Assembly (NCBI GenBank): GCA_023014365.1
Contig: JAEBUN010000003.1
Location: 248,001-312,000 of the forward strand
Direction of reading: 5' to 3'
Source: Lepiota brunneoincarnata
Taxonomy: Eukaryota > Basidiomycota > Agaricomycetes > Agaricales > Agaricaceae
Length of the DNA stretch: 64,000 nucleotides
In this document: piece by piece, positions 38,235-51,742 of the stretch
Layout of the letters: each line of letters begins with the position of its first letter
Position numbering within the stretch: the stretch's first letter is position 1
Translations under genes and position numbers: made by a program
The notes under the pieces: generated by a model
Told to the model about the DNA's origin: nothing
The model's input: only the letters and a program-made list of their open reading frames with translations
Database searches by the model: none

Positions 38235-39239
38235 ATGTATTTACGCCAGTTACCCATACCCTTTGGGCACCTTTGTACTGCAACAAAGACCCAAATTCGT
38301 TGCAAAACAACATCAATAAGCGTGCGTACTATCCCCTCTCTGGCATTGAATTCGCTTGTAACAGAAACTCTATCACACAGGAGCTACAAGCTGCTTTCCG
38401 GGATCCATCATCACCATATTACATCCCCCCTGGTACGCAAGGGCCAGAGACCCCAGACTCCCCTTCACACAGCTATGGTTTCAACCATGCCGCGCTTAGC
38501 ACTCCGAATCCCCTGATCGATGGGTATGAACAACTCGAAGCGCAGGGTTTTGACCCTAAGTCGTTTTGGGAGCAACGAATCACTTGGGGAGACCACGATG
38601 CAATGCAGTACGTTTTTACCTCGAAGTTCGGACATGGGACCCAGTTAACACTCGCCAGGCACGTCAACAACACTCGCTACGGTGTGCATTCATTCTGATG
38701 ATCAAGGCGGAACAAACTAAACCTAAAGGGCGTCCGTTTGTTAGCACGGTTCTTTGAATCAGTAAGTCCGCTTTCTATAACCCGGGATACCAGGACTCAT
38801 ACGACTGACTGACAAGGGTCGAATCAAATGGATGACTTCTGTAGGGCATGAACTCGGGGGTCCTGAGCAAGCGGCGACTATGCTCAAGGCTCGAGGTCTT
38901 TCGTTCATCCTGAAAGCGATTGAGCTAAGATTCCGACGGCCTGTGACATACCCAGACACTGTAGGTGTTTACCCCATATGTGCCAAGCGTGGAGCTCTTT
39001 TTGATCAGTTCTTTGGGGGCTTTCAGCTCTTGATAGGTTACAAGCCAATCTTACCGATGGAAGGAGAAACGGACAATGCCACCTTCCAAGTAACGGCATC
39101 GGCTTATTCCGTCGGGCAGCGGGCTTTCGTTGCTCATTCCAAAGAATCGTTGGTTTGGTATGATTATGATCGTCTCGAGAAATGCGACCCCGGGGAACGT
39201 GCAAGAGAAGTGGTCTTTGGAAGGTTGAGACAGAGGTAA
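38235..39239 (+). CDS. 4HBT (hot-dog fold) acyl thioesterase-like protein, probably mitochondrial
   Basis: A thioesterase-superfamily protein. The proposed start at 38235 gives an Arg/Lys-containing, acid-free N-terminus like a mitochondrial presequence; the first splice (near 38,322-38,367) is uncertain and may hide a one-base error. Then ITQELQAAFRDPSSPYYIPP, PNPLIDGYEQLEAQGFDPKS, and the hot-dog core HVNNTRY-ARFFES-GRIKWMTSVGHELGGPE split by three short introns. RRPVTYPDT-LLIGYKPIL, TFQVTASAYSVGQRAFVAHS and SLVWYDYDRLEKCDPG follow. The H-V-N-N-x-R-Y block corresponds to the catalytic Asn/Asp helix region of 4HBT enzymes. Substrate unknown. The last intron uses an acceptor at about 39,029. 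Confidence 0.78.
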
Positions 39240-41052: not shown

Positions 41053-44000
41053 ATGTCGATCCCTCTCTCCTTCCTCCGTTCTCCCGCCCTCACTAAAGGC
41101 GGGGCGCTTGGCCAACGCGTAGCAGAACAGCTCACGGGGTCATCCGATATCAACTCGCTTTTGGACTGTCTGTGCTCGACACCCAACCCCGCCCTCTTCT
41201 CTTCAGATCTCTCACGGCGGGCTCTCACCCATGAACAACTTCGAGCATTCATCGCCACGTTTGTACTACCCCACTCACCTTCGCGTCCGCCTCTCGGTCC
41301 CAACGATCGTGTGCTCGTTAGTCTCCCCAATGGGCCGATGAAAGCGCTCGTGATGCTTTCGGTGACTTGCTACCATACGTGTGCCCCGGTCAATGCTTCA
41401 TGTACGGCAAGTGAACTCCGAGACGACGCGAAAAGGTTGGGAGCAAAGGTGATCCTCGCTTCTAGCGATTCCGTAGAACGTCTTGGTCTGGAGTCCCTTG
41501 GTGGCTTGGAATGCGAGGTTATCCTCGTCGAACCGCACTCCGAAGGGCCGGCGGGTTTCTTCACTCTCACCTGCCTGAACAAACAGACCATTACTCCGAC
41601 TCACCCTTCTCGCCTGCACGGGTTAGATGATCAATCATTGGTTCTGCAGACCTCGGGAACGAGCGGACGAAAGAAGGTGGTGCCCTATAGTCTATGCGCT
41701 TTGATCGCTGGTGCATGGGTTGTTGTGCACTCCTGGGAGCTGAGGGAGAGCGATGTGAACTGTGAGTAACCATTTCTTGGTGGTCTTGTCCTTCGCTCCG
41801 GCTCAGAGATTTTTATCAGTGAACATGATGCCTCTATTCCACGTTGGAGGCTTTGTTCGAAGTCTGTATGCACCAATACTTTCTGGTGGTAGTGCCATCA
41901 TGTGCAATGGTTTCGACCCTATTGCATTTTGGAACCTTGCCATTCGGTTTAGAGCAACTTGGTAAGATTTGGCGCTCATTTGCGGCATGATCTACGGGAT
42001 TCTTAACGTGATTAGGTATTACGGAGCGCCCACCATTCATCATGCCATTCTATCGTCCAAACCCGGCAACATCGACGCGCGAGACTTGTGCATTCGCATG
42101 ATATGCAACGCGGCAGGCGGACTGCTTCCCTCGTTGGCGATGGATATGAAGAAAACCTTTGCGAATGCGGTCATCCTGCCGTCGTACGGCATGACAGAGT
42201 GCGTCAATTACTTAAACCTTGTATCTCCGCGATGGACTTAGAGCGCTGTTTCTTCCCAGATGTATGCCGATCGCTTCCCCACCGCCGAACTATCAACTCG
42301 ACCGTCCTGGCTGCTCGGGGATTGCTTGTGGCCCAGAAGTCTCTATACGCGACCCCTCGGACCCAGAGCGCGAGCTACCGAGAGGCCGTAACGGTGCTAT
42401 CGCTGTCCGCGGTTTTCCCACCTTCTCTGGTTATGAAATCTCTCCCGATAGGAATGTGCCGCTGGACACGTCTTGCTTCTCGAGTGGGGGATGGTTTGAC
42501 ACGGGTGATATGGGTTATATGGATGCTGACGGGTACGTTCTAATTTAAGAACACGTCGGTTGATCCCTGTCGAGCGGCTAACCGGGTAGATATCTATTCA
42601 TAACGGGTCGGTCGAAGGAGATTATTAATAAGGGCGGAGAGGTGATCTCCCCATTCGAGGTCGAGGAGGCCGTTGTAACTGCGGCTAAGGATCGTGTGAA
42701 GGTTCGTTCCTTCGGTTTGCTTTCTCTTGGCAATTAATCGTCATTTTGATAGGACACCTTGGCATTCGGAGTCCAACACGATGTCTTGCAAGAAGCGATC
42801 GGCGTCGTGATTGTTTGCCAACCTAACAAGCCGAAAATTGGACTGTATCAGCTCCAAGATACTCTCCGGTACGTTTGACACCCCTGCACCGAAAAGTTAC
42901 CAAGCTAGGGTTAACATGATCTCGATAGGGATCACCTCCACCCGTCTAAATGGCCTTCGGTTATTGTGTACATGAGTGATCTCCCTAAGAATAAGTAGGT
43001 CCCTGACTCGCCTTATAATCTATGATATGCAGACCTGATCCTTTTTAGCACCGGTAAAGCCGTTCGTGTAAATTTAGCAAAGCGACTTGGTCTTCCGCAG
43101 TTTCATGATGGAATGTCTGCGGCCCAGCGTCATTTCGAAGCCGAAGTCCCTCCACCTCGGGCATCTCTCTCCGACTCAATTTCGTGTTCACGAATTTCGT
43201 CCTCGACTAAAGCGTTGGAGTCACTTCTAGGTCGAATCGACGAGGTCAAGGATTATATTATCAATATGTCCCCAGATGCTTCCGTTGAGCTCTACATTGG
43301 CGTTGACTCTGATTGCTCCCTCGACTCGGAAGCCTTCAAGGCCATCATTTCGCGTGAGATTGATGGTTATTTGATCCCCGAGACTGTGTACCTCCTCCGC
43401 GGCTCCTTGGCGCGGTTCAAATCTGGCGAGGCCAACTTCGATGAGGCGAGAAGGGACTCTGCTCACATCACGTCGTCCACCATGTCGAGAACGGAACTGC
43501 AGATACGAGACCTAGTGTCAGAGTTGCTAGCACTGGATGCCGCGAACATAAACACTCAGTCGGATTTCTTCCTTCTCGGCGGAAACTCTTTGCTTCTCGG
43601 AAAACTGGCGTACAAGATCCGCAAGGAAACTGGTGTCCACGTGGGAGTTTCTTCTCTCTTCAACAACTGTACCATTGCAGGAATGGCGGCTCTTGTCGAT
43701 GCTGATCTGCCCAAGAACCCGCTACTTTCTCCGAATGAAAAGGACGACAGGCATCGACACTCTGCGGCTACATCTATTACTGCCTTTGGGCTTGAGTACG
43801 ATTACGACCAGGAGTATGAGGTCCTCGAGAAGGCGAAGGCACGCGGCCAAACTCACCCTATCTGTATGATCATACAAGCTATACCCCTCATATTTTTCTA
43901 TCCACTAAAGGCTGCTTTGACATGTGAGTGACCGATAAACATCGTCAAAGTTGGTATCTAAAACAAGTCTATAATCTTAGGGTCACTCCTTTTGTTTATT

Positions 44001-46810
44001 CTGTCCTATATCGCCGAGTTCCTCGAAGGAGGATTCTGGATTAAATTGGGCACCCTCTTAGCTGCTATCGTTGCGTCGAGAGCCGCGATTAGGATCATCT
44101 GTCCGTTGTCTGCAATTGCATTCAAGTGGATCGTTATCGGGCGGTATAAGCCTGGAACGTATCGCATGTAAGTTGTTGCAGGAACGACTGATTGCCGATT
44201 GCCATTCCATTAATTCTTCGGATCAGGTGGTCCATATATTACTTACGTTGCTGGATTGTCGACCAGAGCATCAGGTATTTGTCATTCCTCTCATATTTCC
44301 CCGCTATATTGACACCACCCTCTAAAGGTCTGCTGGCAAAGGTGTTTTCAGCATGCACCCTTCGCTTTCCATTTTCTACTACCGCCTCCTAGGCGCCAAA
44401 GTGGGCAAAAATGTTTATATCGATCCCAAAGCGAAGCTCGGTGAATATGATCTCCTGACCTTGCACGATGGCTGTCGCCTCGACAGATCGCATATCAGAG
44501 GGTTCTGCGTCGAACGAGAGGGATCATTCCGTTTGGATAACGTTGCTATTGGAAGATGCGCCGTCATAAACACTTATACGACGATTGCCCCTGGAGCAGT
44601 GATCCCTGACAGTGCCGTTTATGGGCCCCATTCGTCTTCCCACGATCTTCCCTCTCCAAAGTCCTATGCCGCATATAACCGTACATTGTTTCCGGAACCG
44701 CACTGGGTACTTCAAACCTTCGTCGCATGGCCTCTCATCTCTCTCGTAATCGCCATTGCCCGTGAGTGCTCTTCACTTATTTGGGAATTATAGCGCTCAT
44801 ATAACATAGATATTCCGTGGATGTTCTGTATCTGGCTTATGCTTAAGGAGGTCACAATCGTCACCAGTGGTTTGAATGCGCTGGGAGCAGTGATTTACTG
44901 GTTTGCGGACCCTCGACGCGTCTTATACCACGCTCTTTCTCGAATTGTCAGGGCAATCCTCACCCCGATCCTTCAAATGGTATTGGGGATCGCTCTCAAA
45001 CGTCTCATGGGCCTCAACAAAGAGTATCCATCGGAGAATTTCACTCAACTGATATTGCTGCGACGGTTTATCAACTCGACCCTACTCTCTCAAGAAGCCA
45101 TGCATAGGGCACTCACTATTCTTGGTGTCCACTACGAAATCGTCTCTGTGAGTATCCATCCCCTATGGTTTGTTCTAGATCACCAAGCTGAGCCAACCCT
45201 AGGTTGTGTATCGAGCCATGGGGGCCAAGATTGGGAAACGGATATACTGGCCTGGTTCCTGCATCTATTGCCCAGATCCGGAGCTACTCGAGATTGGGGA
45301 CGACGTTACATTCGGGTCACGCTCAGAGATATTTACAGGTGATCGGCTGGGTTTCAAGAGAGTGGTCATCGGTTCTGGAGGTGAATCTTAACATATTTTC
45401 GGCCTTTTGTCATTTCTAATGGTGATGTAGCGATGATCGCCGACCGTGTCGTGCTACTTCCCGGGGCCCATGTTGGCAGACGAACAGTAATGGGTTCTGG
45501 CGCCCTTGGCAAACGCGATACCGTCTATGAAGATGGCTCGACTTGGATGGGAAATGGTAAGTCCTTTTGTCGGGTTGACGAACCCTGATATTGATTGGGG
45601 GTACAGACAACGGTGAAGCAATCTGTTTCGGGAGAAACGAGAAAGAGTTCGATGATAAGGACGATACCAGTACACCCTTTGGTCGTGCATTCTACCAAGG
45701 AAAGGCCGACTATTGGGTTTATCCTTACCCCTTCGTCCTCGCAATCAACTTGATCGTGACAGCTGTCTCTGCCGCGTACTGGTCGATCAGCGCTGTGACC
45801 GCCGCCCAGATTCTCCGGCACATTCACTTCGAGCTCAACCACACCAACCTTTTCAAGCCGACCTGGTATCGGCTGGCAGTTCTTTATGCTCTCATCGCCG
45901 CTTCCTTCATTATCGTGCTCAACATTCAAGCTATTATAGCCGTTCTCTGGGCTATTGTCACCAAGTGGCTGGTCATCGGCGAACGCCGCGAAGGGCGCTA
46001 TCAATGGGACAAGGCCGATTATTGCCAACGATGGCAATTACACCTGACGTTGTCCCGTATTCTGTACAAAGGGTACGGCACAGGTGGCATCCTTGGCCAC
46101 TTAAACGGGACAGTATACATTGTCTGGTTCTATCGCGCGTTGGGAGCTACTATCGGGAAGAACTGTTCTGTTTTTGCCGGAGGAATAAGTGGGTTGATGA
46201 CGGAGCCTGACCTTTTGGAGGTAAGAATACGCGTCACCCCTATGTCCTTTTGATTCGAACAATCCTCTAGATGGGAGATGATGTCAGCCTCGACGATTGT
46301 TCAGTCGTTGCACACATCAACTCTAGGGGTATCTTTGCCTTGAATAAGCTCAAGATCGGCAATGGTTGCGCTTTGCGCTCAGGCTCGCGGCTTCTCTCAG
46401 GAGCATCAATGGAGGACAATACTATGCTATGCGAACATACGCTCCTCGTTTCCGGTGAGATTGCCGAATCTGGATATGCCTATGCAGGCTGGCCCGCGCA
46501 AAGGCAGAAAAAGGGCGATGGAGATGGGCAGGGTGACGTACCGAACGCCCAGCTTATTTGCCCACTCTGCCGTCAGTTCCCACAACAAGGAGTGGTAACC
46601 GCCTGCGGTCATCTTTTCTGCGATCGGTTCGTACCTCCTATTCTTCGGCCTCCTGACCTCTGACATTCTCATACGTCCCTCCTAAACAATAGGTGCATTA
46701 ATCAAGTGTTGAGAAGTAGACACCGCTGTCCCATTTGTCGCGCCCCATCCCCACCGGCTCAGCTACGTCAAGTGCGGCCATCATTCGCGATCAGTGAACC
46801 TAGCCACTAG
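41053..46810 (+). CDS. Adenylation-carrier protein with Pls-type membrane/hexapeptide region and C-terminal RING finger
   Basis: About 1,620 residues in about 17 exons, with no frame error. Residues 1-550 are an AMP-forming adenylation domain: A3 loop TSGTSGRKK (about 200), FHVGGF, YGMTEC (about 345), [32 protein letters not shown], and A10 lysine in TGKAVRVN. A carrier domain follows with LGGNSLL (about 708), the phosphopantetheine Ser. Then paired membrane helices alternate with three hexapeptide-like domains (GAKVGKNVYIDPKAKLGE; GAKIGKRIYWPG to IGDDVTFGSRSEIF; GATIGKNCSVFAGG to MGDDVSLDDCS). This order (A, T, six helices, three soluble repeats) is that of epsilon-poly-lysine synthetase (Pls) terminal regions. 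The frame runs on, via QRQKKGDGDGQGD, into a C3HC4 RING: CPLC, TACGHLFC, DRC (split by an intron), HRCPIC. Likely a membrane-bound amino-acid or acyl polymer synthetase; substrate unknown. The RING is unexpected. Confidence 0.85.

Positions 46811-48767: not shown

Positions 48768-51742
<2,975 letters not shown>

What the first reader, a model, noticed from the sequence alone, without database searches (positions are those of the whole stretch)
41053..46810. Pls-like synthetase fused to a C-terminal RING finger
Seen: an adenylation domain, a carrier domain with LGGNSLL, six-helix/three hexapeptide-repeat region, then, in the same open frame and across a spliced intron, a C3HC4 RING (CPLC, ACGHLFC, RC, CPIC). 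Known: the A-T-membrane-repeat order is that of epsilon-poly-lysine synthetases, whose product chains are built by the membrane-attached repeats. RINGs are E2-binding ubiquitin ligase modules and are not a known part of these enzymes. Inference: the enzyme may ubiquitinate itself or neighbours, tying isopeptide-polymer synthesis to protein turnover, or the RING may serve only as a zinc-stabilised scaffold.
Basis: partly seen in the sequence, partly recalled or inferred. Interest (0 to 1): 0.85.

Follow-up and report, generated by a model that had tools for sequence, protein, structure and literature searches.

The report
Mushroom membrane synthase with RING tail
A mushroom gene encodes one large membrane enzyme, built to activate a small acid, load it on a carrier arm and pass it on, that ends in a RING finger, the kind of module that normally tags proteins with ubiquitin; related enzymes in many other mushrooms carry the same tail, so the fusion looks real, but what the tail does is untested.

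Summary
The + strand gene 41053-46810 splices into one 1624-aa frame (17 exons): AMP-binding, carrier (GGNS), membrane domain with three hexapeptide regions, then a C3HC4 RING split by the last intron. The RING's first half shares an exon with the third hexapeptide region; a second copy in the same genome keeps the RING, the intron position and phase, and constraint like that of the catalytic parts. A full RING sits at this place in 60 of 137 sequences, from 20 named genera plus the window; 18 have half or decayed RINGs, 19 a coiled-coil-like tail. 'Epsilon-poly-lysine synthetase' is only partly right: the terminal domain is laid out like Pls/PosA but scores 188 bits against a 423-bit cut-off, and the A domain is of acyl-CoA-ligase type, nearest oxalyl-CoA synthetase. 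I favour a membrane acyl synthase with a built-in C-terminal RING of RNF4/BRE1 kind that recruits an E2, most likely for its own turnover. Fusion and conservation are shown; ubiquitin transfer is inferred; the cationic linchpin, present in both copies here, is missing in 55 of 60. Six directed paper searches found no description.

The parts
41053..46810 (+). Whole coding region, 17 exons, 1624 aa, stop TAG 46808-46810
   Evidence: Hand-built splice model, all 16 introns GT-AG and 48-66 bp, open throughout; closest listed relative P0001 (Macrolepiota fuliginosa, 1629 aa) is 79% identical over 100% of residues 800-1624
41293..43085 (+). Adenylation domain of the acyl-CoA-ligase type (residues 81-546)
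   Evidence: Pfam AMP-binding 1.4e-35; best solved relatives oxalyl-CoA synthetases 6qjz, 5ie0, 8aff
41831..41851 (+). A4 motif PLFHVGG (residues 241-247), in place of the NRPS FDxS motif (the latter recalled)
   Evidence: found in 126 of 137 sequences
43500..43697 (+). Carrier (thiolation) domain with attachment serine S714 in GGNS (43587-43589)
   Evidence: Pfam PP-binding 6.5e-11; position; the same part of the model of P0043 matches NRPS PCP structures
43845..46492 (+). Membrane terminal domain: three hydrophobic clusters (43857-44144, 44701-45000, 45717-45986, introns included) and three hexapeptide regions (44377-44640, 45206-45552, 46131-46495)
   Evidence: Hydropathy and motif mapping; TIGR02353 188.1 bits in 3 stretches; AlphaFold2 model of relative P0043 with six long helices and three beta-helices, mean pLDDT 81.8; hexapeptide acyltransferase matches
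46499..46552 (+). Variable, charged linker (residues 1544-1561)
   Evidence: 13-48 aa and 31% mean pairwise identity in 60 sequences; 22% identity to the second copy; block pLDDT 60 and 38 at the matching place in the model of P0043
46559..46626 (+). First part of the RING (ligands CPLC, CGHLFC), in the same exon as the end of the third hexapeptide region
46627..46692 (+). Last intron (66 bp), splitting the RING within the codon before the sixth ligand; if retained it leads to a stop after 11 further codons
   Evidence: same codon and phase in the second copy (68 bp); read-through; nine database proteins end at this place
46693..46738 (+). Second part of the RING (C, CPIC)
46739..46807 (+). 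Linchpin Arg (residue 1602) and C-terminal tail with PSF
   Evidence: Aromatic residue 15-17 after the last ligand in 56 of 60; profile alignment reaches into the tails of RNF4 and BRE1

Best explanation
It is a conserved mushroom family of membrane-embedded acyl synthases, many of them with a fused C-terminal RING. Shown by sequence: one frame with adenylation, carrier, membrane/triple-beta-helix and RING parts, the RING constrained like the rest. Inferred: the A domain adenylates a carboxylic acid that is not a canonical alpha-amino acid, loads it on the carrier arm, and the triple beta-helix core on the membrane surface transfers or polymerises it. Inferred from three helix hairpins in the model of a relative: A, carrier, beta-helices and RING all face one side, presumably the cytosol, where E2 enzymes are. 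Most likely the RING works as a small, probably dimerising E2-recruiting module of the RNF4/BRE1 kind that ubiquitinates the synthase itself or its close partners, so that the enzyme's amount at the membrane is set by its own tail. Members without a cationic linchpin would do this weakly or need a partner.
For: In-frame fusion and splice model; five Pfam RING models over cut-off; RING models match all 25 RING-plus-tail pieces scanned (the window's and 24 of the other 59). The second copy in the same genome, 67% identical over residues 519-1418, keeps the RING, the intron place and phase and the linchpin Arg; NG86 dN/dS: RING 0.09, large A-domain exon 0.10, linker 0.57. Full RING in 60 of 137 sequences, 20 named genera plus the window. 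I, L, M or V two after the first ligand in 55 of 60, Pro after the seventh in 56 of 60. The RING profile matches RNF4 and BRE1 into their C-terminal tails; Bre1 is called a dimeric RING E3 in the abstract of PMC10081246 (listing). A domain acyl-CoA-ligase-like. The beta-helix core matches serine and sugar acetyltransferases.
Against: The linchpin is Arg or Lys in only 5 of 60, against 11 of 15 other distinct RINGs read in this genome. 77 of 137 sequences have no full RING by the same test (18 half or decayed, 19 coiled-coil-like, 40 neither), so it is not needed for the chemistry everywhere; none of the 16 new proteins of the second search has one. No ubiquitination, dimerisation, substrate or transcript evidence. 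dS is near saturation (about 2 for RING and A-domain exon) and the RING is only 43 codons.
Confidence: 0.52

Rival explanations
1. The RING is a zinc-stabilised oligomerisation or tethering module without ubiquitin ligase activity; the C-terminal slot of this enzyme holds whatever dimerises it (RING in one group, coiled coil in another).
For: After the conserved GWPA end, 19 of 137 sequences have a coiled-coil-like tail (by regular expression; mostly polypore and Gloeophyllales relatives) in place of the RING. Linchpin not R or K in 55 of 60. The tail resembles the strand of dimeric RINGs.
Against: E2-contact positions stay conserved in 55 and 56 of 60, and this protein and the second copy have the Arg linchpin. 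A non-cationic linchpin does not abolish activity as such: XIAP has Tyr and is active (PMC12326332, passages).
Confidence: 0.3
2. The RING is an active E3 whose targets are other membrane or metabolic proteins, with the synthase serving as its membrane anchor or sensor.
For: Peroxin-10, a membrane RING E3 (recalled), is among the matched solved RINGs, and the nearest other RING-plus-tail in this genome looks like PEX12 (identification recalled).
Against: The catalytic motifs of the synthase are kept (TSGTSG[KR]KK in 119, GGNS in 128 of 137), so it is not a mere anchor; no substrate-binding part other than the enzyme itself is visible.
Confidence: 0.13
3. Artefact: two adjacent genes joined by the splice model, or the RING lost from the real transcript.
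For: No RNA data; nine database proteins end at the exon before the RING's last part.
Against: RING half and hexapeptide part share an exon without a stop; second copy with the same structure and RING dN/dS near 0.1; 60 of 137 sequences with full RING.
Confidence: 0.02

Closest known systems
Pls/PosA family (epsilon-poly-lysine and delta-poly-ornithine synthetases, TIGR02353)
   Same: Order A - T - six membrane helices with three beta-helix regions (model of relative P0043; PMC10522769 section 13)
   Different: Scores 188.1 bits against a 423.1 cut-off, six relatives 158.9-184.1; acyl-CoA-ligase-type A domain; extra C-terminal RING; that paper gives its main fungal clusters as under 1500 residues (passage)
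Epls, fungal epsilon-poly-lysine synthetase of Epichloe festucae (PMC7179176, passages)
   Same: Fungal, A-T-C1-C2-C3 with membrane segments
   Different: Lysine pocket stated as conserved there; homologues said to be found in a few Ascomycota; no RING in the architecture as described in the passages seen
Oxalyl-CoA synthetase (PDB 6qjz, 5ie0, 8aff)
   Same: Best solved relative of the A domain (5e-54)
   Different: Stand-alone enzyme (recalled); the PLFHVHG motif reads PLFHVGG here
C-terminal dimeric RING E3s RNF4 and BRE1
   Same: Profile of 25 RING tails matches RNF4 (5.6e-21 for a double-RING chain; 39.6 bits for one RING) and BRE1 (6e-12, 48.2 bits), reaching into their tails
   Different: Those are nuclear or chromatin E3s (recalled), not fused to a biosynthetic enzyme
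Hexapeptide acetyltransferases (serine, maltose, galactoside)
   Different: Soluble and CoA-dependent (recalled), no carrier or membrane part

Membership tests
Pls/PosA (TIGR02353) | Terminal-domain model over its curated cut-off (423.1 bits) | tested here: not met
   188.1 bits, E 2.5e-55; six relatives 158.9-184.1 bits
Pls/PosA (TIGR02353) | A-T followed by six membrane helices with three beta-helix regions | tested here: met
   A-T by Pfam; three hydrophobic clusters and three hexapeptide regions in the window protein; six helices and three beta-helices in the model of relative P0043
Pls/PosA (TIGR02353) | Alpha-amino-binding Asp in the A domain (Asp217 of PosA; passage) | tested here: inconclusive
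   A4 reads PLFHVGG and aligns with acyl-CoA ligases; no direct alignment to PosA was made; the equivalence of that His to the Asp is recalled
Pls/PosA (TIGR02353) | Makes an isopeptide homopolymer | not testable with these tools
   -
RING-type E3 ubiquitin ligase | C3HC4 ligands in RING spacing | tested here: met
   Five Pfam RING models over cut-off; ligands at 1564, 1567, 1579, 1581, 1584, 1587, 1598, 1601
RING-type E3 ubiquitin ligase | Hydrophobic residue two after the first ligand and Pro after the seventh (E2 contact, recalled) | tested here: met
   Leu and Pro here; I/L/M/V in 55 and Pro in 56 of 60
RING-type E3 ubiquitin ligase | Cationic linchpin directly after the last ligand (common, not universal: PMC12326332) | tested here: met
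   Arg in the window protein and the second copy; but R or K in only 5 of 60 sequences, the window's included
RING-type E3 ubiquitin ligase | E2 binding and ubiquitin transfer | not testable with these tools
   -
C-terminal dimeric RINGs (RNF4/BRE1 kind) | RING near the C-terminus followed by a short hydrophobic tail | tested here: met
   At most 24 residues after the last ligand in 57 of 60, aromatic at +15 to +17 in 56 of 60; profile aligned into RNF4 and BRE1 tails
C-terminal dimeric RINGs (RNF4/BRE1 kind) | Dimerisation | not tested
   -
Oxalyl-CoA synthetase | Oxalate pocket | tested here: inconclusive
   Overall best match, but PLFHVHG is PLFHVGG and RSCSASLAP is NAAGGLLPS here; pocket residues were not looked up

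The most novel reading that the evidence does not exclude
A family of biosynthetic adenylation-carrier enzymes with a built-in ubiquitin ligase: the membrane synthase controls its own lifetime (or tags its product or partners) through a C-terminal RING, and splicing of the terminal intron that cuts the RING in two, at the same codon and phase in both copies here, decides whether a given molecule carries a working ligase.
Probability: 0.3. Interest if true: 0.8.

Novelty: new variant of a known kind. Interest (0 to 1): 0.56.

Why it matters
If the RING is active, an NRPS-like/acyl-ligase synthase would carry its own turnover signal in one chain, which would make turnover control of a mushroom metabolite directly testable by one zinc-ligand mutation. 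The synthase family is widespread (648 and 991 database hits at E <= 1e-10, of which the best 120 each were listed), yet its substrate and product are unknown. Six searches of the held papers aimed at such a fusion or family and one on fungal poly-lysine synthetases turned up no description of it in what I saw. The RING is also under-annotated: nine protein models stop at the place where the last intron lies in the two copies read here.

Tried and rejected
Adjacent-gene artefact: rejected. A true Pls making poly-lysine: not supported. An oxalate-specific A domain: best match only; motif differs. A search by the RING alone of an Athelia relative gave 3 proteins of 48 candidates, all Athelia, so the spread of the RING beyond the listed sequences is unknown. 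All 59 full RINGs besides the window's come from the first search's list; the 16 new proteins of the second search have none. A scan of prokaryote genomes with the terminal-domain alignment confirmed no relative (290 pattern matches). Neighbour genes: 30 of the 55 open frames of 150 aa or more were scanned; one thioesterase-like and two AAA frames, nothing decisive. Origin of the RING: RNF4, BRE1, COP1, RING2 and peroxin types all match; no donor is singled out. The fold searches list no solved Pls-type terminal domain in the rows shown; this is no evidence of absence. Tail classes are by regular expression: some 'none' rows (P0004, P0005) show a broken RING start, one (P0136) looks like a coiled coil, and the tail of P0133 was not found properly, so class counts are approximate. 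YN00 failed for RING, tail and linker; those values are NG86. Papers (2) and two of the three were seen as listings only.
Full report
What is there. The + strand region 41053-46810 carries one gene. A splice model with 16 GT-AG introns of 48-66 bp gives one open frame of 1624 residues. Pfam finds AMP-binding (81-403), PP-binding (685-750), Hexapep (1215-1245) and five RING models (within 1562-1604), all over their cut-offs; AMP-binding_C stays just below its own. TIGR02353, the Pls/PosA terminal domain, matches with 188.1 bits in three stretches, the best at 809-1007. The RING's first five ligands lie in exon 16 together with the third hexapeptide region; the last three lie in exon 17, after the intron 46627-46692.

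The RING belongs to the protein. The window's genome (55.6 Mb, 95 contigs, unnamed; the closest listed database relatives are from Macrolepiota, Agaricus and Leucoagaricus) holds a second copy on contig C18, 67% identical over residues 519-1418. I read its DNA: the RING is in frame, the last intron (68 bp) is at the same codon and phase, and the linchpin Arg is kept. Between the two copies dN/dS (NG86) is 0.10 for the large A-domain exon, 0.04 for the third hexapeptide region, 0.09 for the RING (43 codons, 70% identical), 0.23 for the tail after it and 0.57 for the 18-codon linker. dS is near saturation, so these are rough; but the RING is as constrained as the catalytic parts and the linker is not.

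Relatives. Two protein searches gave 648 and 991 hits at E <= 1e-10, each listing its best 120; together 136 distinct proteins, from mushroom-forming fungi wherever a source names the organism (class assignment recalled). With the window protein, 60 of 137 have a full RING after the conserved GWPA end of the hexapeptide domain, 18 a half or decayed RING, 19 a coiled-coil-like tail and 40 neither (classes by regular expression). All 59 full RINGs besides the window's come from the first list; the 16 proteins that only the second search listed have none. The full-RING set covers 20 named genera besides the window, mostly Agaricales, plus Athelia and Taiwanofungus (orders recalled). Nine of the 18 halves end one or two residues after the fifth ligand of the RING, where the intron lies in the two copies that I could read as DNA: most simply, their gene models miss the last short exon. 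On a FastTree tree of the core of 121 sequences, RING-bearing and RING-less members interleave, with RING-less Mycena paralogues, decaying RINGs in Lentinula, and a clade of polypores, Gloeophyllales and Jaapia with coiled-coil-like or no tails. The tree is rooted by midpoint, so gains and losses cannot be told apart with certainty; an old RING with repeated losses is my preferred reading. The genes beside RING-less members could not be examined.

What the RING looks like. Across the 60, the linker is 13-48 residues with 31% mean pairwise identity, against 79% for the 150 residues before it and 58% for the RING. E2-facing positions (recalled) are kept: I, L, M or V two after the first ligand in 55 of 60, Pro after the seventh in 56 of 60. 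The residue directly after the last ligand, the linchpin, is Arg in 4 and Lys in 1 of 60. Of 15 distinct other RINGs that I could read in this genome, 11 have Arg or Lys (whose raw print counts 14 of 18 with some loci twice; collapsed by me; three of the four exceptions look like RBR-type RINGs, recalled). Arg is the usual but not universal linchpin, and changing it in RNF38 ranges from minor reduction to abolition of ubiquitination (PMC12326332, abstract and passages). The window protein and its second copy have Arg. An aromatic residue 15-17 after the last ligand is found in 56 of 60, and a profile of 25 RING tails (the window's and 24 others) matches RNF4 and BRE1 into their C-terminal tails; both are dimeric E3s (Bre1: listing of PMC10081246; RNF4 recalled).

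What the enzyme looks like. The A domain matches oxalyl-CoA synthetases best in the PDB (5e-54) and a fatty-acid-CoA ligase model best in NCBIfam, in the window protein and in six relatives. Its A4 motif is PLFHVGG, in 126 of 137. ATP-binding (TSGTSG[KR]KK, 119 of 137) and carrier (GGNS, 128 of 137) motifs are kept, so it looks active. Hydropathy shows three hydrophobic clusters after the carrier. An AlphaFold2 model of P0043 (1102 residues: the very end of the A domain, carrier, terminal domain, RING; 46 sequences; mean pLDDT 81.8, pTM 0.73) shows six long helices, three beta-helices, a low-confidence linker and a RING with block pLDDT of about 74-90. This is the arrangement described from models of the PosA terminal domain, where three beta-helices pack as one domain above six membrane helices (PMC10522769 section 13). 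The best structural matches are hexapeptide acetyltransferases and NRPS carrier domains. TIGR02353 stays far below its cut-off in the window protein and six relatives (188.1 and 158.9-184.1 against 423.1 bits). So it is laid out like a Pls but should not be filed as one.

How it may work. Inferred: activation of a carboxylic acid, loading on the carrier arm, transfer by the membrane-bound beta-helix core. With three helix hairpins the A, carrier, beta-helix and RING parts all end on one side, presumably the cytosol. A C-terminal RING there could bring an E2 to the enzyme itself; self-ubiquitination and turnover is the simplest consequence. The main rival is a zinc-bound dimerisation module, supported by the rare cationic linchpin and by the coiled-coil-like tails at the same junction in other lineages.

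Novelty. Six searches of the held papers aimed at such a fusion or family gave 0, 0, 0, 0, 2 and 3 papers, and one on fungal poly-lysine synthetases gave 7; in what I saw of them the fusion is not described. Three further searches were on oxalyl-CoA synthetase, the linchpin and Bre1. Most subscription papers are not held. Seen as passages: PMC10522769 (with section 13 whole), PMC7179176, PMC2823734 and PMC12326332; the others as listings. The architecture can be seen in database domain lists, so the sequences are public.

Noticed in passing
window 38781-39236 (+): Open frame with a thioesterase-like 4HBT_2 match (8.3e-6), about 1.8 kb upstream of the synthase on the same strand; could act on carrier-bound acids, or be unrelated.
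   Followed up: no
window 49574-50820 (+): Two open frames with AAA ATPase matches and an AAA lid, possibly one tandem AAA ATPase downstream of the synthase.
   Followed up: no
L001 (own genome C18:523000-530600): Second copy of the RING-tailed synthase on the minus strand, with the same last intron.
   Followed up: yes
own genome C14:2172322-2172483 (L047): The nearest other RING-plus-tail found in this genome looks like the C-terminal RING of PEX12 (identification recalled).
   Followed up: partly
own genome C1/C66 and C9/C26: Pairs of RING hits with identical scores on different contigs, which may be duplicated or allelic contigs.
   Followed up: no
P0060, P0065, P0007 (Lentinula, Crucibulum): RINGs that have lost zinc ligands while the synthase part is kept.
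   Followed up: partly
polypore and Gloeophyllum relatives such as P0092, P0105: A charged coiled-coil-like tail in place of the RING at the same junction.
   Followed up: partly
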